Source: Dryococelus australis (taxonomy: Eukaryota; Arthropoda; Insecta; Phasmatodea; Phasmatidae). From it: a stretch of DNA of 64,000 nucleotides. The notes below the pieces were generated by a model. The model ran no database searches. It had not been told where the DNA came from and worked only from the letters and a program-made list of their open reading frames with translations. Shown piece by piece: positions 16,906 to 47,538 of the stretch (position 1 is its first letter; each line of letters opens with the position of its first letter). The stretch covers positions 124,791,838 through 124,855,837 of the forward strand of contig CM057000.1 of NCBI GenBank assembly GCA_029891345.1. Direction: 5' to 3'. The position numbers were made by a program, and so were the translations under genes.

Positions 16906-17405
16906 AGATTGAGTTGCTGTTGGAGTTGCAGTTTTAAAAAAGTTTATTGAGTTGCAGTTTTAAAAAAGTTTATTGAGTTGCTGTTTCAATTGCAGTATAA
17001 AATTAAAGTGTGATTGATTTGCTGTTTGATTAAAATTAAAATTAATGCTTAATCGAGTTGCTGTTTCATTTAATTTAAATAAATGTTTAATTGAGTTGTT
17101 GTTTGATTCAACTGTTTAATTGACTTGCTGTTTGATTTAAGTTTAAATTTATTTTTAATTAAGTTGCTGTTTGATTCAAGTTTAAATTAATGTTTAGTTG
17201 AGTGGCTGTTTGATTTAAGTTAATTAATGTTTAATTGAGTTGCTGTTTGATTCAAGTTTGAATTAATGTTTAATTGAGTTACTGTTTGATTTAATTTATA
17301 GGTGCGAGTGAAACAGCATAGATGTTTGTTTCAGTTAATAAAAAGTTTGATTGACATGCCATTTGTTTGGTTACAATAAAATGTTTAATTGAGTTGCTGT
17401 TTGTG
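16905..17405. repeat. Degenerate tandem array, unit about 35-45 bp
   Basis: About ten imperfect copies of a unit built on TTTAATTGAGTTGCTGTTTG followed by ATT(T/C)AAGTTTAAATTAATG. Unit length varies with small indels. The array lies between the Merlin transposase and the first virus-like sequence. Baculoviruses and relatives carry repeat regions that act as enhancers or origins, but the array could equally be transposon-derived. Confidence 0.75.
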
Positions 17406-17690
17406 AAAACATTCGTTCGCGAAATGGAAAAAAGCCTAAAATAGTCGAGTAGGTCGTGATGGGTCCGCCCGGCGATGACGGGTGTACTTTCATCTGTTGC
17501 ATCCGCAATACTTGGATCTGCCAGTTTCAATTATTGGGGTAAATTGATTTTTAAAAAAATACATTCATTCGCGATCCCGAAAAGGCATGGCGCAGTTGTG
17601 TCTGTCATGACTGGTTCGGCCGGCAGTGGATGCAACTGCATACGCTGTTGCTTTCGCAGACTTTGAACCTGCCAGTTTCGAGTGTTGAGG
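17406..17690 (+). repeat. Two diverged tandem copies of an approximately 150-bp unit
   Basis: ACATTCGTTCGCGA (17,409) and ACATTCATTCGCGA (17,560) open two copies. Each continues through a G/C-rich block and ends with TGCCAGTTTC (17,518 and 17,670) and a TTG(G/A)GGTAA phrase. Both copies can be read as short Gly/Cys-rich peptides with a CQF ending. This may be a duplicated small gene of the virus-like block or non-coding repeats. Confidence 0.5.
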
Positions 17691-17712
17691 TAATTTATAA
17701 AAAAAAAGTGAT

Positions 17713-17742
<30 letters not shown>
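17713..17742. repeat. (TA)n microsatellite
   Basis: About 15 dinucleotide units of TA, directly after the duplicated unit. Confidence 0.9.
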
Positions 17743-17744
<2 letters not shown>

Positions 17745-17934
17745 TAAAATTTTTTTTGTTATATTTATTTAAAAAAATTGAATTTTTTACTGTAGAATGC
17801 TTTACCATGCCCTATTTTGTGATTGCGTACATGTGAACCTATATATAATAAATCGTTAAAATTATGACAAAATGTTAATAATTAATAATTGGTTGTAGGT
17901 CGAAATTCCCCCCCCCTTTTTTTTTATCCAACAC

Positions 17935-18160
17935 GGCTGGATACACAATTCGAAACAAGTGGTCCTTTTCGGTCCTGCACATTTTGTCACCTGGAGACGC
18001 AAAGGGAAACATTTGGTAAAAACCAGCCTTTTTAAGGTGCGCTGGATACGCAGGGGGGAACTTTGTATTTTATTTGGGCTTTTTTCCGGTCATGGTTGGA
18101 TACGTAAGTGGAGGTTTTTTGTCTCAAATTTTTTTTATCATTGGATACATAATGCAGTGG
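17935..18160 (+). repeat. Degenerate repeats marked by TGGATAC
   Basis: TGGATACACA (about 17,938), TGGATACGCA (about 18,043), TGGATACGTA (about 18,096) and TGGATACATA (about 18,143), each followed by AA/GTGG and a T-rich tail, suggest decayed tandem copies of about 50 bp. They overlap the start of an open frame. Function unknown. Confidence 0.4.
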
Positions 18161-18426
18161 TTTTTGAGCGATTTAGATATGCAATATGGAACAATCACCT
18201 GTCTTTTGAATTTTTCACCCACAGATCCGTGGTGAATCTCTCGAGTTCCAGCCAAATGGAGGATGAAACAGAAATGGATGATGTCGAGGAAATGTGTGAG
18301 ACACTTTCGGCTACAGATAGTGAGTCATCAACCTCTTCAGTCCCTGGCCCATCAACGTCTTCAGCCCCAGGACCATCAACCACTTCTTTCCCTGGACGAA
18401 CAACTTCTTTGAATGAATCTATGTAA
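17959..18426 (+). CDS. Acidic, Ser/Pro-rich C-terminal protein of the virus-like block, unknown
   Basis: The frame is open for 155 codons. The first half overlaps the TGGATAC repeats and may not be genuine. From about residue 93 it becomes strongly acidic (MEDETEMDDVEEMCE), then carries three imperfect repeats of the type SSVPGPSTSS. Such acidic plus Ser/Pro tails are typical of disordered viral or nuclear proteins. The next frame downstream (18,481) is strongly basic, so the two may form an acidic/basic pair. No family recognised. Confidence 0.4.
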   Translation: MVLFGPAHFVTWRRKGKHLVKTSLFKVRWIRRGELCILFGLFSGHGWIRKWRFFVSNFFYHWIHNAVVFERFRYAIWNNHLSFEFFTHRSVVNLSSSSQMEDETEMDDVEEMCETLSATDSESSTSSVPGPSTSSAPGPSTTSFPGRTTSLNESM

Positions 18427-18480
18427 TTATGATTGACATTTATTATAATTATTTTTCTAATATGATTGTAATTATTATAT

Positions 18481-18849
18481 TTGAGAATATATATTTTTCT
18501 TGCCAACAGAACTGTACGAAGGTCGCAAAGGCACAGATCTACAGTCGTTTCCCACCAGTTGAGACCTCAAACAACTTATGACGTCCAGCAACAGAGAAGC
18601 GCAAAGTGCAAATCGGCACACGACATCACTCGTGCGAAGCAAAAACAAGCACCGAATAACCGTTCAAGACAAATACCAACAACAGATGTCTCGCATCATC
18701 GAAGAAAGAATCCCAAACCAACCAAGATGACCGATATTTCTCGTCGTGACTTACAGCGAGAAACAGCCCGAAAGACTCGTTACAATCTTATAAAAACAGA
18801 TCAAAGAAAGTATCAGGAATATGGTTCTGTGATTTTGTATTATAATTAA
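18481..18849 (+). CDS. Small basic protein, possible DNA-binding protein
   Basis: 122 codons, rich in Arg, Lys, Gln, Thr and Ser, with clusters such as RRSQRHRS, SHHRRKNPKP and SRRDLQRETARK. No membrane segment and few acidic residues. The composition fits a nucleic-acid-binding or DNA-packaging protein; baculoviruses and nudiviruses pack DNA with the small basic protein P6.9. The link to P6.9 is an inference from composition only, as this protein is longer and less Arg-pure. A poly-A-like AATAAAA signal follows at about 18,878. It may also be a nuclear protein of another kind. Confidence 0.4.
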   Translation: MRIYIFLANRTVRRSQRHRSTVVSHQLRPQTTYDVQQQRSAKCKSAHDITRAKQKQAPNNRSRQIPTTDVSHHRRKNPKPTKMTDISRRDLQRETARKTRYNLIKTDQRKYQEYGSVILYYN

Positions 18850-18908
18850 CCTGTATATGCTTTTTATTTACAAAAAAAATAAAACAACATTTTTTATTTA
18901 TTTAGTTT

Positions 18909-18911
<3 letters not shown>

Positions 18912-18962
<51 letters not shown>
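18912..18962. repeat. (TA)n microsatellite
   Basis: About 25 TA units in an uninterrupted run. Confidence 0.95.
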
Positions 18963-18966
<4 letters not shown>

Positions 18967-19059
18967 CACTCCCCTTTGGAAGCTACTTTCTCGGAGCCCT
19001 GTTAAATGTCTACTTGCATGCCGGTTTCGTATTATTTACATTTTTTGTTAACATTTGAC

Positions 19060-19914
19060 TATTTTCATTCAAAAAATATATGCATAGATACCCACATAAT
19101 TGCAGTTTCACCATTCAAATGCTCAATATTGAGGAAATCTTAAATTTTTTCCTTGTCGTTATTCAATGCCTTTTTTATATTGTCTAAAACACACAAAACT
19201 GTCGATTTATTTTTTCTAGATACAGCTCCGTGTAATACTGTATTGTTATTACGTCCCATTAATTAAAATATTTGCTTCATTTGCTAGCAGATAATGTACC
19301 ACTTCCACAATGCCGTCTTGGGCCATGAAATACAGAACAAATCCTTTTCTAAGAAAACCGGTTCACCCAAACTTTTTTTCAATTAGGTAATGCACAATGT
19401 TTTCACGATCTGCATTAGCCGCTTTCACCAATCACCAACAATTTCCAGTCTTTGTAAATCCTTTTCATTACCGCGTCTATTGTTTGCATCAAATACACAA
19501 GTACGGGCCAATTTTCAAAATAATAATTGGCATACCCCAATACATCTATACCCGCAGAAACTTTGGTTAAAACGCTCGCTGAATGTGAAATTTACCACCA
19601 AAATCCTTTTCTTCAAAATTCAATTTCATCTCCTTCATGCGTACAAGTTCATCTAGCCAACCACGATAGGCAGCTAAACTCACCATTGACAGTTCCTTTT
19701 CGTAAGACAAGTCTTGTTTATCTTCACTGGCTCTCATGGTGTCTTCATTGGCTTTCATGGTGCCTTCACTGGCTCTCAACGCGTCTTCACTTGCTCTGAT
19801 GGTGTCTTCATTGGCTCTGGTGGTATCTTCACTGGCTCTCGTGGTGTCTTTGCTGGCTCTCATGGTGTCTTCACTCTGTAGTTTGCAGAGAGCTAGTGTG
19901 ATCCCTTGCTTCAA
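19060..19914 (-). pseudogene. Ankyrin-type protein with N-terminal seven-residue repeats (broken)
   Basis: On the minus strand the protein starts at 19,914 with a short head. About seven copies of a seven-residue unit of the type T(M/T)RASED follow (DNA period 21 bp, about 19,700-19,880), then SLAAYRGWLDELV, which reads as an ankyrin first helix. Further along, ankyrin-like phrases such as ENIVHYLIEKK and AQDGIVEVVHYLL are visible. Ankyrin proteins are common virus tools for interfering with host NF-kappaB signalling, as with polydnavirus vankyrins, but the target here is unknown. The charged heptad-like repeat may form a coiled coil. The gene is broken, with several breaks. A host or bacterial origin for the ankyrin part is also possible. 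Confidence 0.6.
19700..19880 (-). repeat. 21-bp minisatellite coding a heptapeptide
   Basis: Eight to nine copies of a 21-bp unit (plus strand GGTGTCTTCA(T/C)TGGCTCTCAT with changes) keep the reading frame. In-phase variation suggests that the repeats expanded while the protein was still in use. Confidence 0.85.
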
Positions 19915-20469
19915 TCAACTCGTTTTTATACACGCACTGTGCGAGATTTGTTATTATTTTTTTATTGGCTGAGAAGGAATGTAAGTTTCTTTATATGGTA
20001 TTGTGAGTTTTACCGACCTTTATAAATCGAATAAAAAGATTTTTTTTTTTACTTTTACATACACAATTAATTTAAGATGCAAAAAAAATGTCGAGGATAT
20101 ATTAACACGAACTTGTCAATTAAGTGAGCTAAGTGTAAAAAAATTAAGTTAGATTTATGCGAAATGTTAAAATGTAACGCCGCTTGTTTTGTTCCTGCAA
20201 TCATTTTGCAAGTTTCATTGCAAACTTTTTTATACTTTTTAACTTTCAAAACATTTTCATGTAAACGACAGATGGACTCATGAGAGAGCAGCTTGACTCG
20301 CGCTCTCGAACTCAACCGTCGGGTAATCGGAGTTAGTTCTGTTTATCAAAGTTACCAAATTGCGCAGATACCACTGATGAAACATATTTCATTTTAACAT
20401 TCGCTTATTACTTTTTAAATTTCACAATAGTTTTGGCATTAGTGATGAAACTGATTGAAAACACTTTGA

Positions 20470-21075
20470 GTTTTCTGGGCGCCTCGGGAGATACAATCAC
20501 GATTCGTTTGTTATCGGACCCGTAAACTAATTCGATTCAATTTTTCAAAATTCCATTCAATGTAAAATTGTTTGTAAATTATCGGTTGGTCGAGTAAAGT
20601 TTTGTAATTTATTTCATTGACATCCAACGAACCCTTGACTTGGTCGTCTTCATTATTGTTTAGACGAACTGTGAATATAGTTTGCGAATGTTCATCTAAA
20701 AGGTCGGAAATCGTATTAAATGTTCCAAAATTTAACAATTTTAAATTCTTAAATATTATCCGAGTAATTACACCTCTGGGAATATTCATAGTGTATTTCT
20801 TTGCCGTTTTGAAACGAATCATACTCGCCTCTCTCGGCTTGACGATTAATGATTGTATAGATGCTATTTTTGCGTCGGTCAAACTAGATTCGTTGGTATT
20901 TGTAAAATCATCGGTTTCGGTAGTAAATTCATTTTTCAGAGACGCGGTCGTGGTGGAGATGTAGTTTTTTTATTTCCACCCCACCACTCTCCTCGTCCAA
21001 TTCTATTACAGAAGTGTCAACATTGTGGCGTTTTTTTCCAAATGTATATACCGAGCGGAATTGCAATAATTAACT
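20470..21075 (-). pseudogene. Unknown virus-block protein (broken)
   Basis: The clearest part is a 123-residue stretch starting with MTDAKIASIQSLIVKP and containing a charged, Asn-rich middle (VRLNNNEDDQV). No membrane segment, zinc site or catalytic motif is visible. Codon choice and A+T content match neighbouring virus genes. It is broken, with a few breaks. Function unknown. Confidence 0.4.
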
Positions 21076-21131
21076 AACTATGAGTAGACCCAATCCCACG
21101 TAGAGTTGTTTATTTCTTTTATTCATTGTTC

Positions 21132-21482
21132 TTATCTATATATTGGGAAACGATAGTAAAAAAAAAAAAACAAATTACATAGAGCGATTGTCGGTTGTAT
21201 AGCTCTCCATCGGGTGCCATGACGACCGAGCTCGGATCGCAAATGATTGTTGGCAAACCATAAAATACTTGCCGCACCGATGTTTAAACGGCGTTTTCGT
21301 CGTATTTTACCGATAGGTAAGTGATGAATACAAACATTATTTCTAAAATTTGAGAATAACTCAAGGTGCCATAGATTTGCGTATTTTTGGGGATAGTTTG
21401 TCTTTTGCGAGCCCTCCCATAATGTCTCTACATCAGCTAATACGTCTTCACGGTAATTTGAAAATAAATTAATTTTTTTCAC
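21132..21482 (-). CDS. Unknown virus-block protein, 116 codons
   Basis: The frame starts MKKINLFSNYREDVL and is Trp- and His-containing and fairly basic (KIRRKRRLNIG near residues 60-70), followed by FANNHLRSELGRHGTRW. This even mixture is more protein-like than the low-complexity shadow frames around it. The last residues run into a poly-A/T tract and may not be genuine. No family recognised. Confidence 0.4.
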   Translation of the reverse strand: MKKINLFSNYREDVLADVETLWEGSQKTNYPQKYANLWHLELFSNFRNNVCIHHLPIGKIRRKRRLNIGAASILWFANNHLRSELGRHGTRWRAIQPTIALCNLFFFFYYRFPIYR

Positions 21483-22014
21483 GTGATTGAATATTTTTTC
21501 GTACTTGTGTCGTACCGAACCAACTTTATTCCTAAACTCCTTAATCTTTGTGTAGTAATTTTGTCAACTGTTAAATATTTTCATTTTCTGCCTGTTGTTC
21601 GTTTCTCAAAAATATTTTATAATTTTCGCGAGTGACATGCGGGCCCGACTAATATTGTTGGATAGTATACTGCTTAAGATATAGAAATTTTTAACGATGG
21701 GTTAATTACGAAATTTAAAATTTAATTTCAGAACCGACTTTATCACGTTCAGCCATTAACTAATATATATATTTAAGCATTTTAATCTCAATACGGAATC
21801 GTAAAAATGTTTGTTATTTATGATGACTGTCAGATGTAAAAAAATACAAGTACATAGGCAGATTTAGTTTTATAAATTAAACCGATTCCATAAATTCAGA
21901 ATGCGCTATGTTTTTATATAATTTTCTCCACGCTTTTAACTTTAGCAACTCTCTAATCGCAAAGATAAAATCACAAGATATTGTTGTTTTTTTTCCCAGT
22001 GTAATATTAATTTC

Positions 22015-22205
22015 CTTAATTAGTGGCAGCTGCAGCTCCTGAATTAGCAGCACCTCCGAAAGATGTACTCACACCAAATTGTGTATTCACCGAGCCTTTG
22101 ATTTTACTTTTAAATTTTCATAAAATAAACCAAAAAATTGCAATTAATAAAATAGATCCTATAATGGTAAATGTGTATATTTGCTGTTTTTCATTCTTTG
22201 CCTTA
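22015..22205 (-). pseudogene. Tiny single-pass membrane protein, paralogue of the one at 40.8 kb (broken)
   Basis: Read on the minus strand, it has one hydrophobic segment (IGSILLIAIFW), a basic stop-transfer patch (KFKSKIKGS), then NTQFGVSTSFGG and an Ala-rich tail. The protein at 40,822-41,025 has the same plan, with IGTILILGVL, a KFKDKL patch and THFGTSGAS. Two such copies in one virus block suggest an envelope or occlusion-type virion membrane protein family. Broken. Confidence 0.55.
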
Positions 22206-22351
22206 TATACAAAAACAACATGTAAAAAAATGTTTCACATAGGGTGGGGAAAAGTAAGATAAAAATTGGATTAAGGCAGAAAATCACAACATATTAGGAA
22301 AAAATATATTTTTTATTCATTGGTGTATTTACATTTGTAACAAAAAAGTAT

Positions 22352-24105
22352 TTACACTTGAATAAATTTCAATTTATTCTTGTTTATTGTTCTGGACAAG
22401 ACTACATAAAATTCTTCTAGCGTACATCCTGTCAAATGTGCATAAATGTAACTATCAATTGTTAATCCTATACTACTCCGAACTGTATTTCCATTTGTCA
22501 TTTGAAGCAGGAAACCATATAACAAGATTTTACTTTTTTTAGTAGCTTCACATGCGTGTTGAAAGGCAAATTTATCTATCGTATAGAGATTCATCTTGAA
22601 GAAACATTTTGGTATCAGAAAAAGTTTTTTTTCCCCCTCGTCACAATTGAGTATTTCGTCTCCAACATGTCCCAAATAATATAAAACTTCACCGATGCAT
22701 ACTCCATGACCATGAATTAAACTGCGGTAGGGAACACCAACGATTAGCGGCAAGTAGGCGGGTTTGAGGTTTTCATTCTTTTCTGTTATCAATTATTTTA
22801 TTTTTTATCGTTTGAAAAGAAAATCGGAGTGAACCAGGGACGATTTTTGAAAATACTCTGTTTGTCGATCTCAGTCATGTCAAGCCGGCACCTTCATTTG
22901 TTTAGAAATTTTTTTATTTGAGCGAGAACAGCAATCGACACGATTTGTGTTGAGTACCAAACGTGAAGCCGTTCTCATTTTCAGCTCAGTTACAGTCGCC
23001 AACAACTGTACCGGATACTCAAAATCCAGAGTCAAACAACTCATGTTACGATTGTGTACGCCGTAATGACGTGTAAGTAGTTTCTTCCAATTCAGAGCGG
23101 TATTTAAAGTTGTCAGAAATTCCTGGTATGTCGAATCCATGTTCCAAAACTGTGTGGCAAGGAAAAAATTATCACATCATAGTACACGAATAAGCGAAAT
23201 GTCATTGGGTTTGTTTGTCACAAACAGCTTTAGCTGATACTGATCGCCACAAAATACAATCAATAGTTTACTAAAAGTGTGCTTCACCATTTGGAAAAAT
23301 CCAACTATAAATTTTGCTAGGCATGCGCTGATCATACTGTATTCGTCAATAAATAAAGCAATGGGTGCATCGAAGGAAACTGAATAGTCGTTGTTGCATT
23401 CCACAAAAAAAAACGAAGCTGTGTTGTATCCGAGATCGCAAAACTTGCTCAATTCTTGTACCAATGTAGATATTTTGTCAAGATCAATCAGTGGCAAGAA
23501 CTGCATGAATTTCAAATATTCGTAGTAACTAAATTTAGTCAACCGAATTAAATGACTTGATAACGTCAAACAATTTGCTAGTTTTATCTGTCGACAAATA
23601 TTTCGCAATAGGATGTATTGCGGGGTCGTGTAAAAACTCTGTATTTTTTTCTTCGAGAAAAATATGCAAAACTGTAGATTTCCCATTGCCGGCAGGACCA
23701 TTCAACATTGTGTATTTAAGTTTAGCCAACTCACCATCATTATAATCGAGTCATGTAAATAAAGTTGTTTTAACAAGTTCTTGTTCCATTGATAGAGTTA
23801 ATTTGTCGTTGTTTCCACAGCTTTCGGATCGGAATTCGATGAATATACAAGAGCAATTAACTTTTCCTGAGGATTTTCACGTGGAATTTGATGCGCCCAT
23901 AAACACATCTTATTATTATTCAACAAATCTCTAAAACATAAATTCCAGTCTCGTTTAGCTTCAGTCGTAATTTATACTTGACGATTTTTCCAAAGGTATT
24001 GGTCCGTGAAATGGTTTTTTTTTATATGTTGCTGAGGAAATTTTCGAGGAACTGCCAAAAAAATGAAGGGGCCATTGTGATATTTTAGAACTTTCACCAT
24101 GGATG
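22352..24105 (-). pseudogene. SF1 helicase, PIF1/RecD type (nudivirus helicase-2-like), broken
   Basis: The minus strand shows helicase motifs in the right order. Walker A GPAGNGKST lies at about 23,680-23,710. Walker B ALFIDEYSM and the motif III-like VFCGDQYQL lie at about 23,230-23,360. Near the C-terminus is a UvrD-like segment ending in EFYVVLSRTINKNKL (about 22,365-22,410). Nudiviruses encode such a PIF1-like helicase beside the replicative helicase. It would unwind DNA 5' to 3' during replication or recombination in the infected nucleus. An N-terminal region reaching to about 24.1 kb belongs to it by spacing and strand. The gene is broken, with several breaks. A host Helitron helicase is less likely, because no Rep domain is seen and virus genes surround it. 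Confidence 0.75.
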
Positions 24106-24930
24106 TTGCCGGAATAATAAACAAAGTTACTCACAAACTGAACCTTTTATAGTATATGATTTTTATCCATAAAAATAAAAAACAATATTTTTTTTAGTTC
24201 GTTATTGTGTAAATAAAAAGGTTATCTGTTGTAAAAAAAGGTAATGTATTTTTTTTGTATATAATACTCTTGATTAAAATATGGGAAGTTCGCAGAGTTT
24301 TCAAAACAATAATAATTTAGGTGGTGCCAATTTAAAAAAAAAGGGTCTTTCACAATTTCAGAAAGTCTAACACATGAATATTCGAAACATTTTTTTCTTA
24401 CTAACACGATAAAACTAACCGATTAAAAAAACTTTATTTACAGTTTACAAAATTTACCATCATTGAATAACTATACCTTTTTTCTAAACTTTGAGGGAAA
24501 ACTTCCGGATAATTTATATCAAGAAGAGGTGGGGAAAAAGGGATATGGGATTAAACATATTAAACAAAATTTTATAATTATATCACAATGTTTACGTAAT
24601 TGGAAACAAATTAAGCGACTTTTAAACGTTCGCACATTTGCCTATTGGCAAATAACCCACACCACATTATTTGTGCACTAAAAAAAAAATTGCGCTGAAC
24701 TATTTGATTTTTTTTATATAATGTAGATACTGTTTCTTTCGAGAATATTATCAACTTGGCGGAAATCGAATCAGAAAATAGACAAATATTTCTAAATCTA
24801 AATTTGTTTATTTCTAAATTTAAAGTTTCTAAACATCGTTTGAGATTTAGTCATTCCGATACAATAATTACATAGTTGTTGCCGAATCGAATTCGTTTAA
24901 AGATTTTGCAAAAATGATTAATATTTTGAC
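24106..24930. other. Spacer with a possible short gene
   Basis: AT-rich. A frame of 72 codons on the plus strand (24,463-24,681: MNNYTFFLNFEGKLP...) has mixed composition and could be a small gene, but has no motif. The rest looks non-coding. Confidence 0.3.
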
Positions 24931-26525: not shown

Positions 26526-26589
26526 GATAATTTTCAGGAAAACCAACCAAATACACAACTTACCGGTGCACAACATCCATTAGTTCCAT

Positions 26590-26810
26590 GTATAAATACA
26601 TTTGTATAGGAGATCTAAACATAGGAGATCCCTGCTCTATGGCAGAAATAAAAACGAAGCAATTGTCCAAACGATCAGGTCGAATAAGACACTACGATTT
26701 GTCATTAGTGAAAATCCTAAAAAATATATGAATGCCAACAACAATGATGATTTTATGGTCACAGCATCTTTATATAAACCTTCGGTGAACGAACAATTTC
26801 CACCAAATGC

Positions 26811-26876
<66 letters not shown>

Positions 26877-36424: not shown

Positions 36425-36478
36425 TATTCTTGTATATAAAAGTGGGTTATTTCCTTTATTCGAGTCATAAGCTTTGTG
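36425..36478 (+). promoter_or_regulatory. Duplicated promoter-like block, copy A
   Basis: TATATAAAAG (36,433-36,442) is followed by ATTTCCTTTATTCGAGTCA. Copy B lies 370-380 bp downstream at 36,801-36,850, immediately before lef-4. Identity is about 80 percent over 65 bp by eye. Confidence 0.45.
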
Positions 36479-36800
36479 GCGTTTGTTACAACAACAATCT
36501 GAAAATATTCTCCGATCAGATTGAGCAACAATGAAATAGAAATATTGAGCACAATCGACAAACTCATTAGTGTTTTGATATTGAACTCTTTTTTTTATTT
36601 ATTTATATAAGCAATGACACTTCATCGTTATATTGTCAACTGAATACTATTTGTCTTTCCGATATTATTATATTTTTGCTGTTGGATATTAACTGGTTTG
36701 ATAGCAATACCCATTAGTCATGAAATGTTTTTTTCGCTATCGCTAGATCTAGCAACTTGATTCGCATTGTTGATATATTGGACGTAGTGTTTTTTTTAGT

Positions 36801-36850
36801 TCTTATATATAAAGAGGGACATTTCCTTTATTCGAGTCAAGAGATTTGCA
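36801..36850 (+). promoter_or_regulatory. Duplicated promoter-like block, copy B, upstream of lef-4
   Basis: TATATATAAAGAGGG (36,805-36,817) is followed by CATTTCCTTTATTCGAGTCA. The TATAAAGAG core also occurs before the nuclease gene (44,618), which suggests a shared promoter type in this virus. Confidence 0.45.
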
Positions 36851-38432: not shown

Positions 38433-38582
38433 AATTGAAAAGATTTTATTGAATAAATAATACATGTATCATAACCGTATGTTATTTTTAAAATTTCACA
38501 AAAAGTTTGGTAAAGTCTGGGAATTATTTTAGCGGGTTTCATTATTTTTATTTTAAAATATATCGTAAAAGTGAGTGTCCAA

Positions 38583-39775: not shown

Positions 39776-39832
39776 CTTGGACTTTAAAAATATCCAACTA
39801 AAAGTGATTGAATTAATTTTATTGAACGAAAC

Positions 39833-40385
39833 AGGTTACACCGTCGCCTATAAAGTACAGTCTACTTAGCGAACTGATCGCGATCCCATAAAAGTTCCAG
39901 TAAATTTAAGTAAATGCATCACATCTTCCAATCGTTCTGTCGATGCAATACCAAAGTACCAATTTGATCAAAACTATTCGTTTGTGCATGTGGGTACTCC
40001 GGGATTGACCAAAGTAGTTCGAATGGAAGATAACGAAATTTTCGATTCGTTGCAGTGCACACCAAGTATTACCGGCGTGGTTGCCTTCAGCACGGTTCAC
40101 ACAAATTCTGACAACGTACAAAACATCTCACAGAATTTAATCGAAACCTATTATTACACTCTGTATTTCGAAAACGATAAATTATTTTTTGAGGATGTGA
40201 ATAAAAACAAAGCATAGATTGGTGTGAAATTCGACACTCCTCTATCCATTTTGGAATTTGATGGCCCGGTGATTAGGCGAAAATATGGTGTTGGTGCGAA
40301 AATCGTAAATGGAATTTATTACATTGGAAATACTTTACTTCTGCTTTGTACATGATGCTAAATGCGAAATTTGTAAATGTCAAGA
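39833..40385 (+). pseudogene. Unknown virus-block protein (broken)
   Basis: A protein-like reading includes FDQNYSFVHVGTPGLTKVV, TGVVAFSTVHTNSDNVQN and IGVKFDTPLSILEFDGPV. The pattern is beta-rich and repeats short hydrophobic strands. It may be the continuation of the gene at 38.6-39.8 kb or a separate structural gene. Broken. Confidence 0.4.
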
Positions 40386-40559
40386 TTAACCCACGGATAA
40401 AATAAGACAATGGATGCAACGATGCTTCAGTACAAAATTACTCATTTACTGAGACGAGTTGTACTCAGTATAAACAACCTTCAAAATTTCTACTCGATGC
40501 GTAAATTGGCCTTTATCGCAAGAACCTTTACCTGGCCACCGAAATAAACAATGAATATG

Positions 40560-40807
40560 TTGATGTACGATACTATGATAATAACATGGCTGAAATTTCA
40601 CTGAAAACAATTGAAGCGTCTACTTTATTGACCAGTATGAGTGTATTCTTAATCAAATCGTTTGGTTACGATTTCGAGTACAAAGAAAAGCCCTTTTGCG
40701 TCGATTATCTGAATGAAAGTTTTATTTTTTCACCCGCACAAATAAAGATAAATTATTTCATTTCAGACATGTTTCACTTACCAGTCGCTACGTGTGATTT
40801 ACTATAA
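40560..40807 (+). CDS. Small unknown virus-block protein, 73 residues
   Basis: It starts MAEISLKTIEASTLLTSMSV at 40,586 and ends PVATCDLL, with FIFSPAQIKINYFISDMF in the middle. A few residues of upstream coding may belong to it. It lies 15 bp before the membrane protein at 40,822 in the same direction. No motif recognised. Confidence 0.35.
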
Positions 40808-40821
40808 TAATCTCGCACATA

Positions 40822-41025
40822 ATGATATATAAGAAGATGAATAATAAAAACCAAATATATCTATGGACGGGTATTGGCACCATTTTAATTTTAGGGGTTC
40901 TGGTCTTTGTGATTTGGAAGTTTAAAGATAAACTCCAAACCTCCATGACTACGCATTTTGGTACCAGTGGCGCATCGTTAAAAATAACTACCCCTGCGGG
41001 AACTGCTAAGACAACACAGAGTTAA
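40822..41025 (+). CDS. Tiny single-pass membrane protein, 67 residues, looks whole
   Basis: It starts MIYKKMNNKNQIYL, then has a membrane helix (TGIGTILILGVLVFVIW), a basic KFKDKL patch and a Ser/Thr/Gly-rich tail (THFGTSGASLKITTPAGT). The topology suggests a short N-terminus, one helix and a disordered tail. A broken paralogue lies at 22.0-22.2 kb on the other strand. Small single-pass proteins of this plan are common in the envelope of occlusion-derived virus in baculovirus relatives. A specific family (such as ODV-E18) cannot be claimed. Confidence 0.6.
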   Translation: MIYKKMNNKNQIYLWTGIGTILILGVLVFVIWKFKDKLQTSMTTHFGTSGASLKITTPAGTAKTTQS

Positions 41026-41249
41026 ATCGGCGGAAACAAATTGTACTATAAGAAATCAGTACGGGACTCTTGTCGTTTCGGGTTGATGCTGACTACAATA
41101 TACATTATATTATGGTTTTTTATTTCGATATTTGTATTCGAATATATAAAAAAAAACTTAGTATATGATACGTATATTATCGACTACATGTAAATTGTGA
41201 AAACAAAAAATAAATAAATAAATAAAAAAACTAATGAAATAGAACAAAA

Positions 41250-41485
41250 ATGTGTAATCATCTTTCTGTGTATTGCTAGCTGTGACGATATTCGTATACA
41301 TATTTTTTGTGAACCAATTGCATACGATACACGAAGATGTGGATCATCTTAGGAGAGCAATACCATGCATATCTTTTTGCCTCGACCAAAATCACCTTCG
41401 CCAAAACATTAACCAACAAACATTTCTACCATGCAAAAGCACGCTCAAAACAGATGAATATATGTGTAATTTGGATTTTTTTTAA
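41250..41485 (+). CDS. Small Cys-containing, membrane-anchored protein (PIF-3-like plan, uncertain)
   Basis: It opens with a hydrophobic N-terminal anchor (VTIFVYIFFVN), then VDHLRRAIPCISFCLDQNH and C-terminal CKSTLKTDEYMCNLDFF. Five Cys in 70 residues after an N-terminal anchor resemble the start of PIF-2/PIF-3-type proteins, but the piece is too short and too generic to assign. It sits just upstream of pif-5. It may be a fragment. Confidence 0.3.
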
Positions 41486-41778
41486 AGGGGATTTATAAGA
41501 ACAACTTTTTTGTAAATAATAAATAATGTTTTCTTTAAATTATTTGTTAAACATGAAATGTAATACTAGTAAACAACTAATAATATGTACATCGGTAGTA
41601 ATACTAATCATTAACATCCTCTTGTTTATAGCAAGTATTAAAACTTGTGTGTAACCAATCACCGGGATGTTGATTATTTTTAATTGTATCTTGGCAGTCT
41701 ATATTACCGACGTCGCCATCAAACTTCCCAAACCTCTAACTTGCGAATTATAACAAAAATAAGTTTAGCCACATAACA

Positions 41779-42820
41779 ATGTTGAAGGATCTCGTTAAAT
41801 TCGCCGGTAATATCGACAAGGTGGGTGAATGTGCAATAATTCGACATTCACTAGTCCCAAATTTACCAAAAGATTCTCTTTTCAAAAACATTTTTAACAA
41901 TCGATCTTTGTATAGCTTGAAAACGACTGCAAATGGCAAAAAAAAAAAAAAAAAAAATACGAATTGGCAACACCACAATTGGCGAATTCATCAGCAAGAT
42001 CAAAAAAGGTCAGTTTGACACCGCTTTCGGTCAAATTGATTAGAGCATCGGTCTCAACGACAAAATGTGTAAAGTTTTATTGTACGAAATAAAAAACTTA
42101 CCAGGTTATGTGCTGCGTAAAATTCAGCTCGGATCCAAAAAAACTAAACTCGTTGAATCCAGCATTGAATAAAGCCACTAATTCTAACGATGTTGTAAAA
42201 CTAATCATGACCAATCCCAAGTTCACGAAAGTAAAAAAAAACTTTTTTTCTCTCAGAGAACCAAACTTGTCCGTTACAACCTTCTTTCTACTGTCGGTGT
42301 TTCGGGTCTGGCGCCCTACATCGATAGGCACAGGACGGCGATAAGCGGATGCATTCGCTACGAAAACGACAATGGAAAACTCAAAGTGTGTAAAGTCAAT
42401 CATCTCAGTTGTCGGAGGTTTTCCAACCATAGTTACTTGGATTTATGAGACGATAAAGTTTTATGCGACGAGGTAAAAAACACCCGGTGTTTGGGGGCGG
42501 ATGGTGACGTTGCGTGCGTTCATTGTAACAGTGTTCGAAACGATCCTCCAGTGACCGACATCAACGTGCAATATCGTTGTGTCGATGCCTCGTGGACGGA
42601 TGCGATCGCCGATATATTGGACAACGATGTGGAGAATGTTGTGGCTTCTGGCGGTGATGTATTCGACTATACAAAAGACATATCTCGGTATTTGTATTAC
42701 GGATTAATTTTTATCGGTGGGGTCATTATTTTGGGTTTTGCCGCCTACCTAATCAAATTCATTCTGTTGTGGTTAAAGGGTAAAAGAAATATAAGTAGAA
42801 ATGACGGGCGTGGACAATAG
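41779..42820 (+). pseudogene. pif-5: PIF-5 / ODV-E56-like envelope protein (broken)
   Basis: The N-terminus has VGECAIIRHSLVPNLPKDS and SLFKNIFNNRSLYSL, which match the start of baculovirus ODV-E56 (VGETALLKRHS... and SLFSNIFTRN). IGNTTIGEFISKIKKGQFD follows, as in the family. The C-terminal part has paired Cys (ACVHCNSV) and one strong membrane helix (LIFIGGVIILGFAAYLI, about 42,700-42,755). It ends in a short basic tail. PIF-5 is an envelope component of the oral entry complex. Length (about 345 codons) fits. The last 20 bp overlap the next gene. It is broken, with several breaks. Confidence 0.8.
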
Positions 42821-43049
42821 GATGCCCATACTCAAGCTGTTTGAGGTGTACGAAATCTTATCGCAGATACCTAATTTAACCGATAGGCATTTCAAATTAC
42901 TCATAAAAATTTTGGTAACTTATCTTATAATTGATCGCCCATTAAATTCCCTTACCACCGCCGCCGATTTATCATCACTGATGCTAAGCCTCTCGGCGCA
43001 GGGGAAGTATAGACCGAGGCCCTTGTCTTCCCAAGCGGTAATCATTTAA
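42801..43049 (+). CDS. Unknown virus-block protein, 82 residues, overlapping the end of pif-5
   Basis: It starts MTGVDNRMPILKLFEVYEIL inside the last 20 bp of pif-5, a compact arrangement typical of large insect viruses. The body is helical (TDRHFKLLIKILVTYLIIDRP) and ends at a stop next to a hairpin-rich, GC-rich segment. It may be shortened at its end. No motif recognised. Confidence 0.4.
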   Translation: MTGVDNRMPILKLFEVYEILSQIPNLTDRHFKLLIKILVTYLIIDRPLNSLTTAADLSSLMLSLSAQGKYRPRPLSSQAVII

Positions 43050-43230
43050 TTGGACCAGGGTTAGGGGCAGCAAACCCACCTTACCCTGGTCACCAATTAT
43101 ATAGACACTTTAACCTGGCAAGCTCGGCGCTCGCATGTCAGGTGTGTGGTTTTTGTGACCCAGTATATCCTCTGGGCCACGGTCGTTCCAATCTTTTCCC
43201 CCCTTACTTTTGCCTTCAAAAGTAAGGGGA
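43048..43230. other. GC-rich segment with three hairpins
   Basis: Three inverted repeats lie close together. AATTGGACCAGGG / CCCTGGTCACCAATT occupies 43,048-43,097, CCCAG / CTGGG lies around 43,160-43,178, and a perfect 12-bp stem CCCTTACTTTTG / CAAAAGTAAGGG occupies 43,201-43,228 with a four-base loop. The block is far richer in G and C than its neighbours. It could be a terminator zone, an origin, or a small foldback element inserted in the virus. Confidence 0.6.
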
Positions 43231-43239
43231 TGGGCGATG

Positions 43240-43713
43240 GAGTTCCGGTTCCCTTACCGACCTTTCATTACCCGACTATTTATCTGTCTATTTTGCAAAT
43301 CACTTTCCACACGATTTGAAAAAAAAAAAATTATTCACAATCGATGCGCAAAATCAATCTCGATCGGTTGTGATTTCCGTGAACAAAAAAATTAATAATT
43401 CCACACTAAACAAACAGTTGAATCTTATCTTGCAAGTGTATCTCTGGTACCGTAATTATGCGCTAAATTTTGTGCACGGCATTTATTCTTTCGAATTAAA
43501 CTCTGAGTTTGATTCTCTGTTCGGAGGAATCGATGATTTCAACGAGTGGTTTGCACGCATAATGCCAAATGGCAAACCGATACTTTCGCTCTTCACCAAG
43601 ATGGATCGTGGGATATTAAATCCCATTAATGTAAATTTATTGACCGATCTCGAATTTAACACGCCAGACTTTCAACACATTGTTGATATCTCATACTCAA
43701 TTCTTGTTGACTA
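43240..43713 (+). pseudogene. Unknown virus-block protein (broken)
   Basis: The clear part has SVVISVNKKINNSTLNKQL, LWYRNYALNFVHGIYSFEL and FDSLFGGIDDFNEWFARIM, mixed alpha/beta with aromatic residues, ending ISYSILVD. The beginning merges with the hairpin segment. No domain recognised. Fossil. Confidence 0.4.
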
Positions 43714-43719
43714 GTTTGC

Positions 43720-44090
43720 AAATTCCCGTGTTTTTGTCCGTGACTTCGTCCCTAAGTTGTTTCATCAACGTTTCCTCGAATTTAAAAAACTCGTGCAGTT
43801 TGTAGTCAAAGGAATCGTTACTAATCTCATCGAATCTCTGAAGGTAAACACTCATCAATTTCAATTTTTATTTTGTCCAGCAATCCACAATGTTGACATA
43901 ATTTACGTATGTATGAGATGTGTCGAATATCTGCTTGCTTCGAATATAGTTGTCTGTCGCAATGCACAACTCATCAAGTCGCGATTTGTCATCCCCGCAA
44001 GTTTTCGGAAGTTCAGCGCATTTCGATTTAATCCTATTCAAGTACTCTTCTTCGAAATTTATCGGAAATATTTGGCCCATTATTAAAATT
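43720..44090 (-). pseudogene. Unknown virus-block coding region, strand uncertain
   Basis: The minus strand begins MGQIFPINFEEEYLNRIKSK at 44,080, is charged and Cys-bearing (SKCAELPKTCGDDKSRLDEL) and reads naturally. The plus strand also has an open frame across the interval, but with a more hydrophobic composition. The minus reading would make it divergent from the gene at 44,111. No family recognised. Confidence 0.4.
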
Positions 44091-44110
44091 AGTTCATATT
44101 AATAAAGAGT

Positions 44111-44437
44111 ATGTCTGATCTACTCAAGTTTAGCAATCATAATCCGTATTCTATAGACCGCATTTATTACGAGTATCAAGATGTCGCACGTAGAAAAACC
44201 CTAGACTATATTATTCGAAAGAAGCAGAGTTACGATGAGACCCGATTGGACCAATTCCTCAACAATGACAAGAGGGAATTGTTACTCTATTTGAAAAATG
44301 TCGACCAGACGTCCTATAGATACAAAACAGTCTTGAAAAAAGTCAACGAGTTGTACACTTTTAATTTAAAATCGAAGTTACCCTCGTTTTACAAACATCT
44401 CGAAATTTACGAATGTGTTCAAAGATTAGTTTCCTAG
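44111..44437 (+). CDS. Unknown virus-block protein, 108 residues, looks whole
   Basis: It starts MSDLLKFSNHNPYSIDRIYY. It is highly charged and helical (YEYQDVARRKTLDYIIRKKQ, then NDKRELLLYLKNVDQ) and ends YECVQRLVS. No membrane helix and no zinc or catalytic motif. It could be a small DNA-binding or capsid-associated protein. It lies in a divergent pair with the minus-strand region at 43.7-44.1 kb. Confidence 0.5.
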   Translation: MSDLLKFSNHNPYSIDRIYYEYQDVARRKTLDYIIRKKQSYDETRLDQFLNNDKRELLLYLKNVDQTSYRYKTVLKKVNELYTFNLKSKLPSFYKHLEIYECVQRLVS

Positions 44438-44617
44438 GTGTTACGATTGAACAATGTTTGGTGTTCGTTGCGAATGGAGATTGTGGAAACTTTTAAACAT
44501 TTAAATATTTTTCCACATTCTTTTGTAAACAAGGAAAAGAATATTCTTTACATTTTGTTGCGCTGAATTTTTTTTTTTTAATAATAATTTTTTTAATTAC
44601 AAAAAAGCAAACGGGTG

Positions 44618-44681
44618 TATAAAGAGACGAGAGTGTCTATTAGTTTCGCATTAATTGTTTTCCTTTTGTAATAGAATAACA
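44618..44681 (+). promoter_or_regulatory. TATAAAGAG promoter of the nuclease gene
   Basis: TATAAAGA (44,618-44,625) lies 57 bp upstream of an ATG at 44,682. The same TATAAAGAG core heads the lef-4 promoter block. Confidence 0.45.
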
Positions 44682-45422
44682 ATGTTGGGGCATATAGAAC
44701 TGGGAGATTTGTACAATTTGTTATCTCTAGAGGAAAAACTCACAGTATTCGGTGCACAATGATCCAAACAAAACCTTTATCACTGCTTCGACATGTGTTT
44801 TAAACACCTTTTCAAAATTTCAGTCAAAGAAAATGGCCTCTTACATCGTGAATTCGCCCAAGTTTTCCATGGGTCCATACACTGATTTCCGAACCTATGA
44901 CGATCCGGTAGCCACAATCTAGGAAAAAAAAAAATCAGTCGTGAAACCATTGATTTGTGAGTTCAAATACATACAGATATCGAAAATTACTATAAATCGA
45001 ACGAGCAAAAACTACCCGATACGATAAACGATACGTTTACACAATTTTTAGATTTCGACCATGATGTTAGACAAGCCAATGGCTGGACACCTTATGCGTC
45101 GGAGCCCAGAGTGCGAGATGCTGATTTTGCTCTTTATGGAACCATCGACATGCTTTTCAAGTCCAAACAGGGGGATTTGGTGATGGTCGATTGGAAACGT
45201 TCGCCAAAGAATTTCGAAGAATCTCGCGGCGATTATGGACTGGGACCTCTATGTAACATATTAACATCACAACTAAACAAGTACTCGTTGCAGCAAAACA
45301 TTTATCATTATATATTCAACAAGGGAAAAGAATTATATTCGACCACATGCGAACGTAAACTCACCGAAACATATCTACTGCAATTGCACGCAAACTGTCG
45401 AATTACAAGTTACTGTCGGTAG
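44682..45422 (+). pseudogene. PD-(D/E)XK nuclease, RecB/Cas4-like (broken)
   Basis: Conserved nuclease features appear in order. IENYYKSNEQKLPDT (about 44,975-45,020) resembles the helix with the first acid in RecB-like nucleases. FALYGTIDMLFK (about 45,126-45,160) holds the D of the motif, and DLVMVDWKRSP (about 45,175-45,207) is the (D/E)XK strand with its Lys. LNKYSLQQNIYHYIF (about 45,275-45,320) is the Q-containing helix common to this group. Such nucleases process DNA ends during recombination and replication in large DNA viruses. It is distinct in motif pattern from baculovirus alkaline nuclease. The N-terminal half is poorly preserved. Broken, with a few breaks. Confidence 0.7.
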
Positions 45423-45494
45423 CTGATTTTGACGAAAATGTGATTAAGAAATGTTTAATTTACACAATCGATAATCAATAAAATTGTTTGGTTT

Positions 45495-46940
45495 TTACTT
45501 ATTGTCATCCTGAAATTTATTATATTCTTCTTCATCCATTGTTCCTGTATTAGCAATTGATTTGTTGAAATGATCCAAGTTTGACCTGATGAAAATTCGA
45601 TCGTTTGTCAGGATGCTGTTCCGGCACAGTTCGTAGATGTTTACGAGATGCAAAGTCAACACCATCGATTCGTTTGCATTTTCGAGTACTTTTAGCGCCG
45701 CTTCATACGAAATTTGTTGACTCATGTAATATTCCTTTGGTATCTGTACGAGTAGAGATTGATTGATGATCGCAAACGAGAATTGTTCGTCTTTAAAGTT
45801 TTCCAATCTCGCCATATCATGTATGGCCATGACGTTTCGAAAAGTGAGGTATTGTTGTGGAGAAATATTATAAATCACCCGACGTTGGTATTCTTCATCC
45901 CGGTCCTTAAGATGGCGATTCTTAAACAACCGCAAGAGACCAATTAATGCGCCGTGACGTTCTTCCTCCGAGGGCAAGTTGATAAAGTAAAAGTCATGGG
46001 TTCGGTCGAGGATCTTATTGATTTTTTTGTAATTGGTTGCAGCTCCAATTGAAACATTATTTTTCATTTGAACACCTCCTTCGAGACCGGTCTGTAGGGT
46101 AATTGCCACACTTCGTAAATTGGGTGGAATTGCCACGTTTTGCGAACCTATCTCGTCGATTTCGTCCAGAAATATCACGAATCGCTGGTTCTGGTTCTCG
46201 ATGGTCATATTGAACAAATTGGCTAATTTGCATTCGGTATCACTGATGATGGGAGCGGATAACTGCCCGATTTTGAGTTGGTATAGTTCGGCTTTCCATT
46301 CGGACGCGATTGCGTGGGCCAGTGTACTCTTACCCGTACCTGGAGGACCGAAAAACATTATAAATTTGAATCTTGGGTTACACACCTGCGTATAAATTAG
46401 AATTTCGAGTTCTGCTTTCAACTGGTCGTGGCCACGTACATCCTTGAATGAAAATTCTGGTTCGATATGCCATGGGTCCAGCTCGGATGTAATCTCCGAA
46501 TTTGATTCTCCTCCAAATAAATCGCTCGCATTCTTGGGATTCCGAAAGTAACCCATAAATAAATTTTCAAACTGAGCCTTTAAATATTCCAGGTTATTTT
46601 TCGATAGAAGCGCGCATCTGAAAGTTGCCAATGTTTGTACCAAGTACACCCACGATTTGTAAATAGTGTATTGATTTTCAGCCATTGTAGATTCCCACTC
46701 TGTTAAAATTTTTGAAAATTCTTTACCTAAACCAAAGAGCGTAGTCTCTAAATCATTTAAAAGTTTGTCACCTTTCTGCGAAGTGATTTGTGCTTTTTCT
46801 AGCGAAGATGACAAAAATTCCCCACGGTTCAGCATTTGAGATAATTTCTCCATGTTTGTGTATTCGCCAAATGCGATTTTCGGCGCACATATAAACTGAA
46901 TCAGACCGGCTCCTACGATGGCGCGACCATTTTCATTCAC
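45495..46940 (-). CDS. AAA+ ATPase, 481 codons, looks whole
   Basis: The longest intact frame in the window. The N-terminal 160 residues are helical, with a possible coiled coil (residues 46-90). The AAA+ core follows: FKDVRGHDQLKAELE (165-179), Walker A GPPGTGKST (198-206), Walker B VIFLDEIDE (255-263), sensor 1 GAATN (299-303), then an Arg (313) and LPSEEER (322-328), placed as in the second region of homology of classic AAA proteins. The C-terminal lid reaches about 415, with a tail ending in an acidic Asp/Glu/Asn stretch. The core resembles Vps4/katanin/FtsH-type AAA proteins, which remodel protein complexes. In a virus it might act in assembly or DNA work. It may be a captured cellular gene. 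Its partner is unknown. It lies tail-to-tail with the nuclease gene (about 70 bp apart). Confidence 0.85.
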   Translation of the reverse strand: MNENGRAIVGAGLIQFICAPKIAFGEYTNMEKLSQMLNRGEFLSSSLEKAQITSQKGDKLLNDLETTLFGLGKEFSKILTEWESTMAENQYTIYKSWVYLVQTLATFRCALLSKNNLEYLKAQFENLFMGYFRNPKNASDLFGGESNSEITSELDPWHIEPEFSFKDVRGHDQLKAELEILIYTQVCNPRFKFIMFFGPPGTGKSTLAHAIASEWKAELYQLKIGQLSAPIISDTECKLANLFNMTIENQNQRFVIFLDEIDEIGSQNVAIPPNLRSVAITLQTGLEGGVQMKNNVSIGAATNYKKINKILDRTHDFYFINLPSEEERHGALIGLLRLFKNRHLKDRDEEYQRRVIYNISPQQYLTFRNVMAIHDMARLENFKDEQFSFAIINQSLLVQIPKEYYMSQQISYEAALKVLENANESMVLTLHLVNIYELCRNSILTNDRIFIRSNLDHFNKSIANTGTMDEEEYNKFQDDNK

Positions 46941-46999
46941 TGTTTTTTTTTTTTAATCTGGGTTTTCCGCAGTACTCATAAGATTCTTTTTTTATCGTC

Positions 47000-47538
47000 A
47001 TGCAACACCAACAACAGCAACAGCAGAGAACCTTGTTTCCATTGTTGCAACTTCAACCACTCAGACCAGAGTGCACCGACTCTGACATTCTCGTAACGAA
47101 CCAGCAATCTTCTTCTCAGCTGCTAAACTCTTTTCCTTTCCCTCCACAACAACATCCACACATATGACTCAAATGTCCATTCCTCGCATCGGCATGCGAA
47201 TATAGCCAGATGATGGTCACGAAGAATTGGCGCAAAGACTTAAAAATTACATATCTCGATTCGTGGAAATTTTGATGGGAATCCATACGACCATAACACA
47301 AACAAAAAAGGCGGTCGGTGATTCTTCTTATGTGTTAAATACCTCGGTAGCTATGAAACGAGTGGCTATACATTTCGCCGAGCTCGGCCGACTAGAATCG
47401 GAAATGGCAAATTATGGAAATTCTAAAACTGATATGGTTGTATATTCTTGTATTGATAAACAGCTGATTTCTTGTTTGTCACTGCAATTCTCCTGGCTCG
47501 GGGGAAAAAAAATTGCAATTTTCTCTTTTAGATGGTGA
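47000..47538 (+). pseudogene. Gln-rich protein with helical C-terminal part (broken)
   Basis: It starts MQHQQQQQQRTLFPLLQLQP at 47,000, divergent from the AAA+ ATPase about 60 bp away. The N-terminus is Gln/Pro-rich and disordered. The later part is helical (LAQRLKNYISRFVEILMG, SVAMKRVAIHFAELGRLE), with the look of a coiled coil. No family recognised. The last residues, after about 47,470, probably lie outside the original gene. Broken. Confidence 0.5.

What the first reader, a model, noticed from the sequence alone, without database searches (positions are those of the whole stretch)
16906..47530. Endogenous nudivirus-like genome in arthropod DNA
A 30-kb island of densely packed genes on both strands carries lef-4, pif-1 and pif-5 signatures, which occur together only in Naldaviricetes. 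A lef-8-like gene, a PIF1-type helicase, a nuclease and an AAA+ ATPase accompany them. Host-type SINE, LINE, MITE and a DRC1 exon lie on the flanks. Many of the other genes are unrecognised, so the source virus may belong to an undescribed lineage. Most genes are broken, so this is a fossil.
Basis: partly seen in the sequence, partly recalled or inferred. Interest (0 to 1): 0.92.

Follow-up and report, generated by a model that had tools for sequence, protein, structure and literature searches.

The report
Giant virus-derived transposon in stick insect
The block is one decayed copy of an unknown relative of baculoviruses that spread through a stick-insect genome as a very large element with the same small transposon at both ends, which suggests a route by which a large DNA virus can become a mobile piece of host DNA.

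Summary
The block is real and viral, but it is neither a lone fossil nor clearly nudivirus-like. The genome is that of Dryococelus australis (scaffold N50 matches to the base). It holds at least 79 pif-1, 150 p74/pif-0 and 88 AAA+ ATPase places of this family. pif-1 copies are star-like (median 13.6% apart) and decay nearly neutrally, so they come from one old burst. The viral part runs from window 18200 to 47418, where this copy is cut short; 5 of 5 other copies checked continue. To its left, 15689-18199 is a Merlin-type transposon "T" (DDE_Tnp_IS1595 domain, 24-bp GG-ended inverted repeats). All 39 other scored places keep the T-virus junction. At the far end of the full element a second T lies in the same orientation (36 of 39 other scored right ends). 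One 78-kb copy has an exact 8-bp target duplication outside both Ts; three others do not show one cleanly. Best reading: a naldavirus genome that moved as a composite transposon between two Merlin elements. The AAA+ gene places the virus, tentatively, nearer hytrosaviruses, filamentoviruses and AmFV/LGDV than nudiviruses. lef-4 and lef-8 rest on motifs only. The intact AAA+ gene shows no sign of selection.

The parts
15689..18199 (+). T, Merlin-type DNA transposon, left copy; left end of the whole element
   Evidence: 4 of 4 other copies (L067-L070) match the window down to 15689/15690 and show no match to each other beyond; T homology ends at 18199 in 3 of 3 right-hand copies
15689..15712 (+). 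T terminal inverted repeat, left, begins GG
   Evidence: 23 aligned bases at 87% plus the outer G
18176..18199 (-). T terminal inverted repeat, right
15922..16947 (+). broken transposase of T in several reading frames
   Evidence: PF12762 DDE_Tnp_IS1595 7.9e-5 (below cut-off) on piece 16128-16592; 4.4e-12, 1.4e-10 and 2e-9, over the cut-off, on 3 of 5 T pieces of other copies
16908..17403 (.). tandem repeat array inside T, about 39-bp units
   Evidence: shared by other copies
18200..47418 (.). naldavirus-derived part of this copy, truncated at 47418
   Evidence: 39 of 39 other scored places cross the T-virus junction; 5 of 5 other copies continue past 47418
22355..23750 (-). pieces of a Pif1-type helicase
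   Evidence: AAA_19 0.014, below cut-off; Walker A at 23676-23699; other motifs by eye
27199..28876 (+). pieces of an unidentified viral gene; lies beside p74 in other copies
   Evidence: tblastn and blastn matches in p74 loci; no Pfam match over cut-off
29011..31176 (-). candidate lef-8-like gene in pieces
   Evidence: no LEF-8 Pfam match; RNA-polymerase-beta-like G-x-K..Q-K-G motif by eye, recalled; the only LEF-8 profile match in the genome (E 0.024) lies about 4.8 kb from a p74 locus
34432..35693 (-). pif-1 in pieces
   Evidence: PF05092 2.1e-4; open pif-1 pieces of two other copies (L009, L019) align at 72-76% aa over their main stretches
35939..36214 (.). AT-rich repeat unit that is repeated directly and inverted in other copies (hr-like)
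37221..38429 (+). candidate lef-4-like gene in pieces
   Evidence: K-x-D-G motif at 37590-37610; no Pfam match
42449..42817 (+). candidate C-terminal piece of pif-5 (odv-e56)
   Evidence: PF04639 0.054, profile 236-292 of 293
45498..46952 (-). AAA+ ATPase, 485 aa open, Cdc48/VCP-like core
   Evidence: PF00004 1e-19; hytrosavirus AAA+ proteins are the top 3 structural matches; only full-length stop-free one of 88 scored places
47418..47419 (.). breakpoint of this copy: viral sequence ends, other DNA begins

Best explanation
The block is one truncated, dead copy of a giant composite transposon. Its core is the genome of an unknown naldavirus (pif-0, pif-1, probably pif-5, AAA+ ATPase, helicase). 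A Merlin-type DNA transposon T sits at each end in the same orientation. Shown: the T-virus and virus-T junctions at dozens of places, both ends in the same copy for two copies (two more presumed), near-neutral decay, a star-like history, and one exact 8-bp target duplication outside both Ts. Inferred: Merlin transposase made from T acted on the outermost inverted repeats, moved the whole unit of some 78 to 94 kb as cargo, and spread it over many chromosomes in one burst; afterwards the copies were broken by substitutions, deletions and rearrangements.
For: pif-1: 79 matches among 83 scored of 170 candidates, best 5.1e-15, 0 of 14 control genomes. p74: 150 matches, all 150 scored of 380 candidates, best 1.3e-14. 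AAA+: 88 scored places of 825 candidates. Places lie on 16 contigs, C1-C12 and C14-C17. Of 80 pif-1 places (the window added), 16 have an AAA+ place 5.5-12.4 kb away, 15 on the same strand. The left T-virus junction is crossed by 39 of 39 other scored places and the right virus-T junction by 36 of 39. Left edge sharp at 15689 in 4 of 4 other copies, with unrelated flanks; right edge sharp at the equivalent of 18199 in 3 of 3. T has the diagnostic Merlin features. Two whole copies measure 93.6 and 78.3 kb; the second has GACTAAGA on both outer sides; two random host octamers agree exactly with chance 6e-5. The first 550 bases of left and right Ts are 82.6-89.6% alike in 36 pairs and show no left and right groups, as expected if both were near-identical at the burst.
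Against: Exact target duplication in only 1 of 4 copies tested (two of the four are only presumed to be whole units); one shows 6 of 8 AT-rich bases, two show none that can be read. Of 40 scored T starts, 21 have no viral marker within 90 kb, so many may be solo Ts, or marker lists are incomplete; no solo T was examined. Three of 39 right ends stop 15 bases short of T. Scored places are the best candidates only, which favours long matches. The eight bases inside the two T-virus junctions differ, so T did not simply insert once into a circular genome, or the trace is lost. All this rests on one assembly from PacBio CLR reads, whose authors warn of many indel errors.
Confidence: 0.65

Rival explanations
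1. A circular naldavirus genome that carried one T entered the genome by homologous recombination with resident T copies, giving T-virus-T in direct orientation at many old T sites. The target duplication outside would then be that of the old T.
For: Gives the same layout and the same outer duplication; T may also exist without virus (21 of 40 scored T starts without a viral marker within 90 kb); Ts are all about equally alike.
Against: Needs a separate recombination event per copy; the inner junctions lack the target duplication that T should have left in the circle.
Confidence: 0.22
2. Many independent germline integrations of one virus strain during an epidemic, by the virus's own machinery, with T as a long terminal repeat of a linear viral genome.
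For: Star-like history with 7.7-23.6% pairwise distance and no close pairs; variants shared by five or more copies lie mostly at CpG sites.
Against: T has its own inverted repeats and transposase domain, so a transposon end is the simpler reason for sharp ends.
Confidence: 0.08
3. One integration, then multiplication by large host duplications.
For: Near-neutral decay of the copies.
Against: Flanks outside the sharp ends are unrelated in 4 of 4 left and 3 of 3 right cases.
Confidence: 0.02
4. The source virus is a true nudivirus.
For: pif genes occur in all sequenced naldaviruses, and a second helicase also in nudiviruses (PMC12548425; that this helicase2 is Pif1-type is recalled).
Against: The AAA+ ATPase is listed for hytrosaviruses, filamentoviruses, AmFV/AmFLV and LGDVs; top structural matches are hytrosaviruses. 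The PIF-4 profile found nothing, but it rang in no control either, so that says little.
Confidence: 0.1

Closest known systems
Teratorn (herpesvirus fused with a piggyBac-like transposon, medaka; PMC5601938, listing and start of abstract seen)
   Same: A large DNA virus genome that moves as a DNA transposon
   Different: Other virus class, other transposon superfamily, other host phylum; here two whole Ts in direct orientation (how Teratorn's ends are built was not read)
Endogenous nimaviruses of crustaceans, one group with Ginger2-like transposase (PMC10871703, abstract and passages seen)
   Same: Multi-copy endogenous genomes of a family in the same class, estimated 22 to 477 copies per haploid genome, described as giant transposable elements
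   Different: Nimaviridae in crustaceans, with a 46-bp inverted repeat and Ginger2-like enzyme or tyrosine recombinases; here an insect, Merlin, and direct flanking transposons
LGDV-related elements in ants, above all Harpegnathos saltator with 1,378 loci (PMC12548425, abstract, sections 8, 9, 12 and passages seen)
   Same: Many-copy naldavirus elements in an insect; AAA+ ATPase and helicase2 in the virus
   Different: The sections read report duplications with relatively conserved flanks, not a transposon at both ends
Merlin / IS1595 DNA transposons (PMC8101967, passages seen)
   Same: DDE_Tnp_IS1595 domain, GG-ended inverted repeats of 24 bp or more, 8-bp duplication, some with internal tandem repeats
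   Different: No viral cargo described in the passages seen

Membership tests
Naldaviricetes | pif genes (pif-0, pif-1) | tested here: met
   PF05092 and PF04583 over cut-off in the family; in the window pif-1 only, p74 core not found
Naldaviricetes | pif-2, pif-3, DNA polymerase B, p33 | not tested
   no genome search spent on them; not seen among 186 scanned window ORFs
Lefavirales | lef-4, lef-8, lef-9 | tested here: inconclusive
   lef-8: one sub-threshold match 0.024; lef-4: motif only, genome search not answered; lef-9 not searched
Nudiviridae | gene set without the AAA+ ATPase of the hytrosavirus side | tested here: not met
   AAA+ gene present in this copy and 87 other scored places; which virus families carry it is taken from PMC12548425
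Hytrosaviridae / Filamentoviridae / AmFV-LGDV group | AAA+ ATPase homologous to theirs | tested here: met
   top 3 BFVD matches are Musca and Glossina hytrovirus AAA+ proteins, E 8e-15 to 2.5e-13, followed by giant-virus AAA+ proteins at 2.9e-12; model mean pLDDT only 58, so the placement is suggestive
Hytrosaviridae / Filamentoviridae / AmFV-LGDV group | position in a core-gene tree | not tested
   no reference sequences were obtained
Merlin transposon (unit T) | DDE_Tnp_IS1595 domain | tested here: met
   over cut-off in 3 of 5 T pieces of other copies, best 4.4e-12
Merlin transposon (unit T) | inverted repeats with terminal GG | tested here: met
   24 bp, 21 of 24 alike
Merlin transposon (unit T) | 8- or 9-bp target duplication | tested here: inconclusive
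   exact 8 bp in 1 of 4 units, 6 of 8 in one, none readable in two
Composite transposon | cargo between two copies of one transposon, moved as a unit | tested here: inconclusive
   layout met; movement as a unit rests on the duplication above

The most novel reading that the evidence does not exclude
A whole naldavirus genome of an undescribed lineage between hytrosaviruses, filamentoviruses and AmFV/LGDV was captured between two Merlin transposons and spread through a stick-insect genome, perhaps to several hundred copies, as an insertion-sequence-style composite transposon, with excess on the X chromosome.
Probability: 0.55. Interest if true: 0.93.

Novelty: new variant of a known kind. Interest (0 to 1): 0.86.

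Why it matters
It would be an insect counterpart of Teratorn and of crustacean endogenous nimaviruses, reached by another kind of enzyme and by a composite layout known from bacteria. It makes an open question testable: whether large DNA viruses become genome residents by borrowing transposons. It also gives a datable record of an unknown virus lineage in stick insects, may explain part of the unclassified repeats of a 3.4-Gb genome, and offers a case for the study of X-linked accumulation.

Tried and rejected
Fixed right end at 47418: most other scored matches to the right edge stop exactly there and I first noted this as an element end; two searches showed that 5 of 5 other copies continue with shared sequence, so it is only the truncation of this copy. 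Withdrawn.

AAA+ as a domesticated host gene: it is the only stop-free full-length one of 88 scored places, but changes unique to it give N/S 4.24 against 2.5-3.5 expected without selection, and no third-position excess. Rejected; with about 4.5% of neutral changes making a stop, a survivor among many is expected. Of the five other copies in that test four gave N/S 2.45-2.85 and one (L066) 1.32, lower than expected although it carries stops; not explained.

Selection on pif-1: singletons by codon position 239, 236, 256; variants in five or more copies 31, 18, 45, of which 22, 14, 33 at CpG. Against full neutrality: pairwise differences by position were 0.139, 0.121, 0.159, and of the 13 copies printed of 31, 10 have N/S below the expected 2.94 (range 1.19-3.47; window copy 2.4, single-hit changes 9.6, 10.0, 17.3). 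CpG sites explain part of this; some change under selection before the burst is possible. I call the decay near-neutral, not neutral.

'All broken': stops lie inside the matched stretch in 62 of 79 pif-1 and 86 of 88 AAA+ places; many partial p74 stretches are stop-free (not counted).

Searches that found nothing: IMG/VR with four window pieces; Protein Data Bank with the pif-1 piece (none), the lef-4 candidate and the pif-5 piece (chance only); 5.8 billion proteins with a p74 piece and a pif-1 piece. Pox_RNA_Pol_19 (0.045) and Bunya_G2 (0.038) were taken as chance. Rfam: none. tRNAs: none.

Prior description: 'virus' does not occur at a word start in the D. australis genome paper and 'viral' occurs once, in a reference title; 'Phasmatodea' and 'stick insect' do not occur in PMC10259472. 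No paper on stick-insect naldaviruses or Merlin-flanked viruses was among those listed; some searches listed only the top 15 of 44, 15 of 29 and 6 of 44. The library holds open-licence papers only.


Full report
What is in the window. The window is G000:C8:124791838-124855837 of a 3.415-Gb genome. [quoted passage not shown] The middle of the window is gene-dense: 42 ORFs of 100 aa or more in 19300-47550 against a mean of 6.2 in random sequence of the same dinucleotide make-up; the LINE-bearing right flank is as dense, so this alone is not specific. Of 186 scanned ORFs (of 215) a sub-threshold pif-1 (2.1e-4), a weak pif-5 end (0.054), a weak helicase (0.014) and a strong AAA+ ATPase (1e-19) were recognised. 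The claims of lef-4 and lef-8 rest on motifs that I recall and the nuclease on nothing that a profile confirms.

It is a family. The pif-1 profile gives 79 matches in the genome among 83 scored of 170 candidates, best 5.1e-15, and rings in 0 of 14 control genomes. The p74 (pif-0) profile gives 150 matches, all that were scored of 380 candidates, best 1.3e-14; it rang in 1 of 14 controls, below cut-off. The AAA+ ORF finds 88 scored places of 825 first-look candidates. These are lower bounds. Open pieces of other copies pass the curated cut-offs clearly: p74 2.1e-15, pif-1 5e-13. All 30 pif-1 loci fetched match the window within 33.4-36.2 kb, in pieces 67-89% identical in DNA, with copy-specific deletions, inversions and junctions. 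Of 80 pif-1 places (the window added), 16 have an AAA+ place 5.5-12.4 kb away, 15 on the same strand. The core of p74 was not found in the window copy.

History. Over a 975-base frame of pif-1, 465 pairs of 31 copies differ by a median of 13.6% (7.7-23.6%), with no close pairs. Variants seen in one copy are spread evenly over codon positions (239, 236, 256), and variants in five or more copies are mostly at CpG sites (69 of 94). A mild lack of amino-acid changes remains in 10 of the 13 copies printed. So the copies stem from one source, or very similar ones, in one burst, and have decayed nearly without selection. Corrected distance per copy is about 0.075 at the median; with assumed rates of 1 to 3.5 per billion years per site (recalled, not measured) this is some 20 to 75 million years. 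The window's AAA+ gene is the only full-length stop-free one of 88 scored places, but its unique changes show N/S 4.24, no constraint. Places are more frequent on C17 (27 of 88 AAA+, 40 of 150 p74, 16 of 80 pif-1, against 9.6% of the bases). C17 has 326.6 Mb and by the published L50 of 5 must be the fourth-largest scaffold; the genome paper names Scaffold_4 as the X. That these are the same is inferred from size rank.

Ends. The right edge of the window copy, 47418, is its own truncation. The left edge is a true end: four other copies match down to 15689/15690 and show no match to each other beyond it. The first 2.5 kb, 15689-18199, is a DNA transposon T. It has 24-bp inverted repeats that begin with GG, a transposase with the DDE_Tnp_IS1595 domain (best 4.4e-12, in another copy) and internal tandem repeats. 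A paper on Merlin elements gives these as features of the group or of some members, with 8- or 9-bp target duplications (PMC8101967, passages seen). All 39 other scored places of the left region cross the T-virus junction. Of 40 scored T starts, 19 including the window have a viral marker within 90 kb; 12 fit left ends and 5 lie on the far right side in the same orientation. Three of the latter were fetched. In each, shared viral sequence runs up to T, T runs to the equivalent of 18199, and then unrelated DNA follows. The right virus-T junction itself recurs in 36 of 39 other scored places. So the full element is T-virus-T with Ts in direct orientation, 93.6 and 78.3 kb long in the two copies with both ends read.

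Movement. In the C1:206.6-Mb copy the bases outside both Ts read GACTAAGA, an exact 8-bp duplication; two random host octamers agree with chance 6e-5. In the C1:237.1-Mb copy 6 of 8 AT-rich bases agree (chance 0.6%), and in two further copies, on C3 and C17, whose two ends were paired by position and orientation only, none can be read. If each base had a 7% chance of change, about a third of true duplications would still be exact, so this is compatible with movement of the whole unit but not proof. Left and right Ts are about equally alike (first 550 bases, 82.6-89.6%, 36 pairs). The bases inside the two junctions do not match each other, which speaks against a single T inserted in a circular genome, the rival in which virus circles recombine into old Ts.

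What the virus was. pif-0 and pif-1 make it a member of Naldaviricetes by that feature. The AAA+ ATPase is reported from hytrosaviruses, filamentoviruses, AmFV/AmFLV and LGDVs, a group distant from nudiviruses and baculoviruses (PMC12548425, sections and passages seen). The model of our AAA+ protein, of low mean confidence (58), has hytrosavirus proteins as its three best BFVD matches. I therefore place it on that side, tentatively. AT-rich repeats beside pif-1, direct and inverted in other copies, recall baculovirus hr regions (the comparison is recalled).

Known kinds. Teratorn and its relatives are herpesviruses fused with piggyBac-like transposons (listing and abstract starts), and some crab nimaviruses use a Ginger2-like transposase (PMC10871703). 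This case is a new variant: another virus lineage, an insect host, a Merlin element, and a composite layout. Caveats are the single error-prone long-read assembly, scoring limited to the best candidates, the small number of duplications read, and no tree.

Noticed in passing
genome-wide, contig C17: Places of the family are two- to threefold more frequent on C17 than its share of bases; by size rank C17 is the X scaffold of the published assembly.
   Followed up: partly
window 35939-36214; L002, L003, L019: AT-rich units in direct and inverted arrays beside pif-1, like baculovirus hr regions; the window keeps one unit.
   Followed up: partly
window 19570-19914(-): A 21-bp tandem repeat that reads as a repeated seven-residue coding motif inside the viral part.
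   Followed up: no
window 48545-48865(+): A THAP-domain piece (1.4e-3, below cut-off) just right of the breakpoint, perhaps from a P-type element.
   Followed up: no
C7:72332837-72333040(+): The only LEF-8 profile match in the genome (E 0.024) lies about 4.8 kb from a p74 locus, hence probably in the same viral family.
   Followed up: partly
L071:1397-1918(-), L073:7127-7501(+): Near the right T lies a similar-looking ORF in both loci without a Pfam family over cut-off (best zf-Di19 0.047), with a cysteine pattern that looks like a zinc finger.
   Followed up: partly
L066: This AAA+ copy has N/S 1.32 in its unique changes, lower than the neutral expectation, although it carries stops.
   Followed up: no
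   Followed up: no
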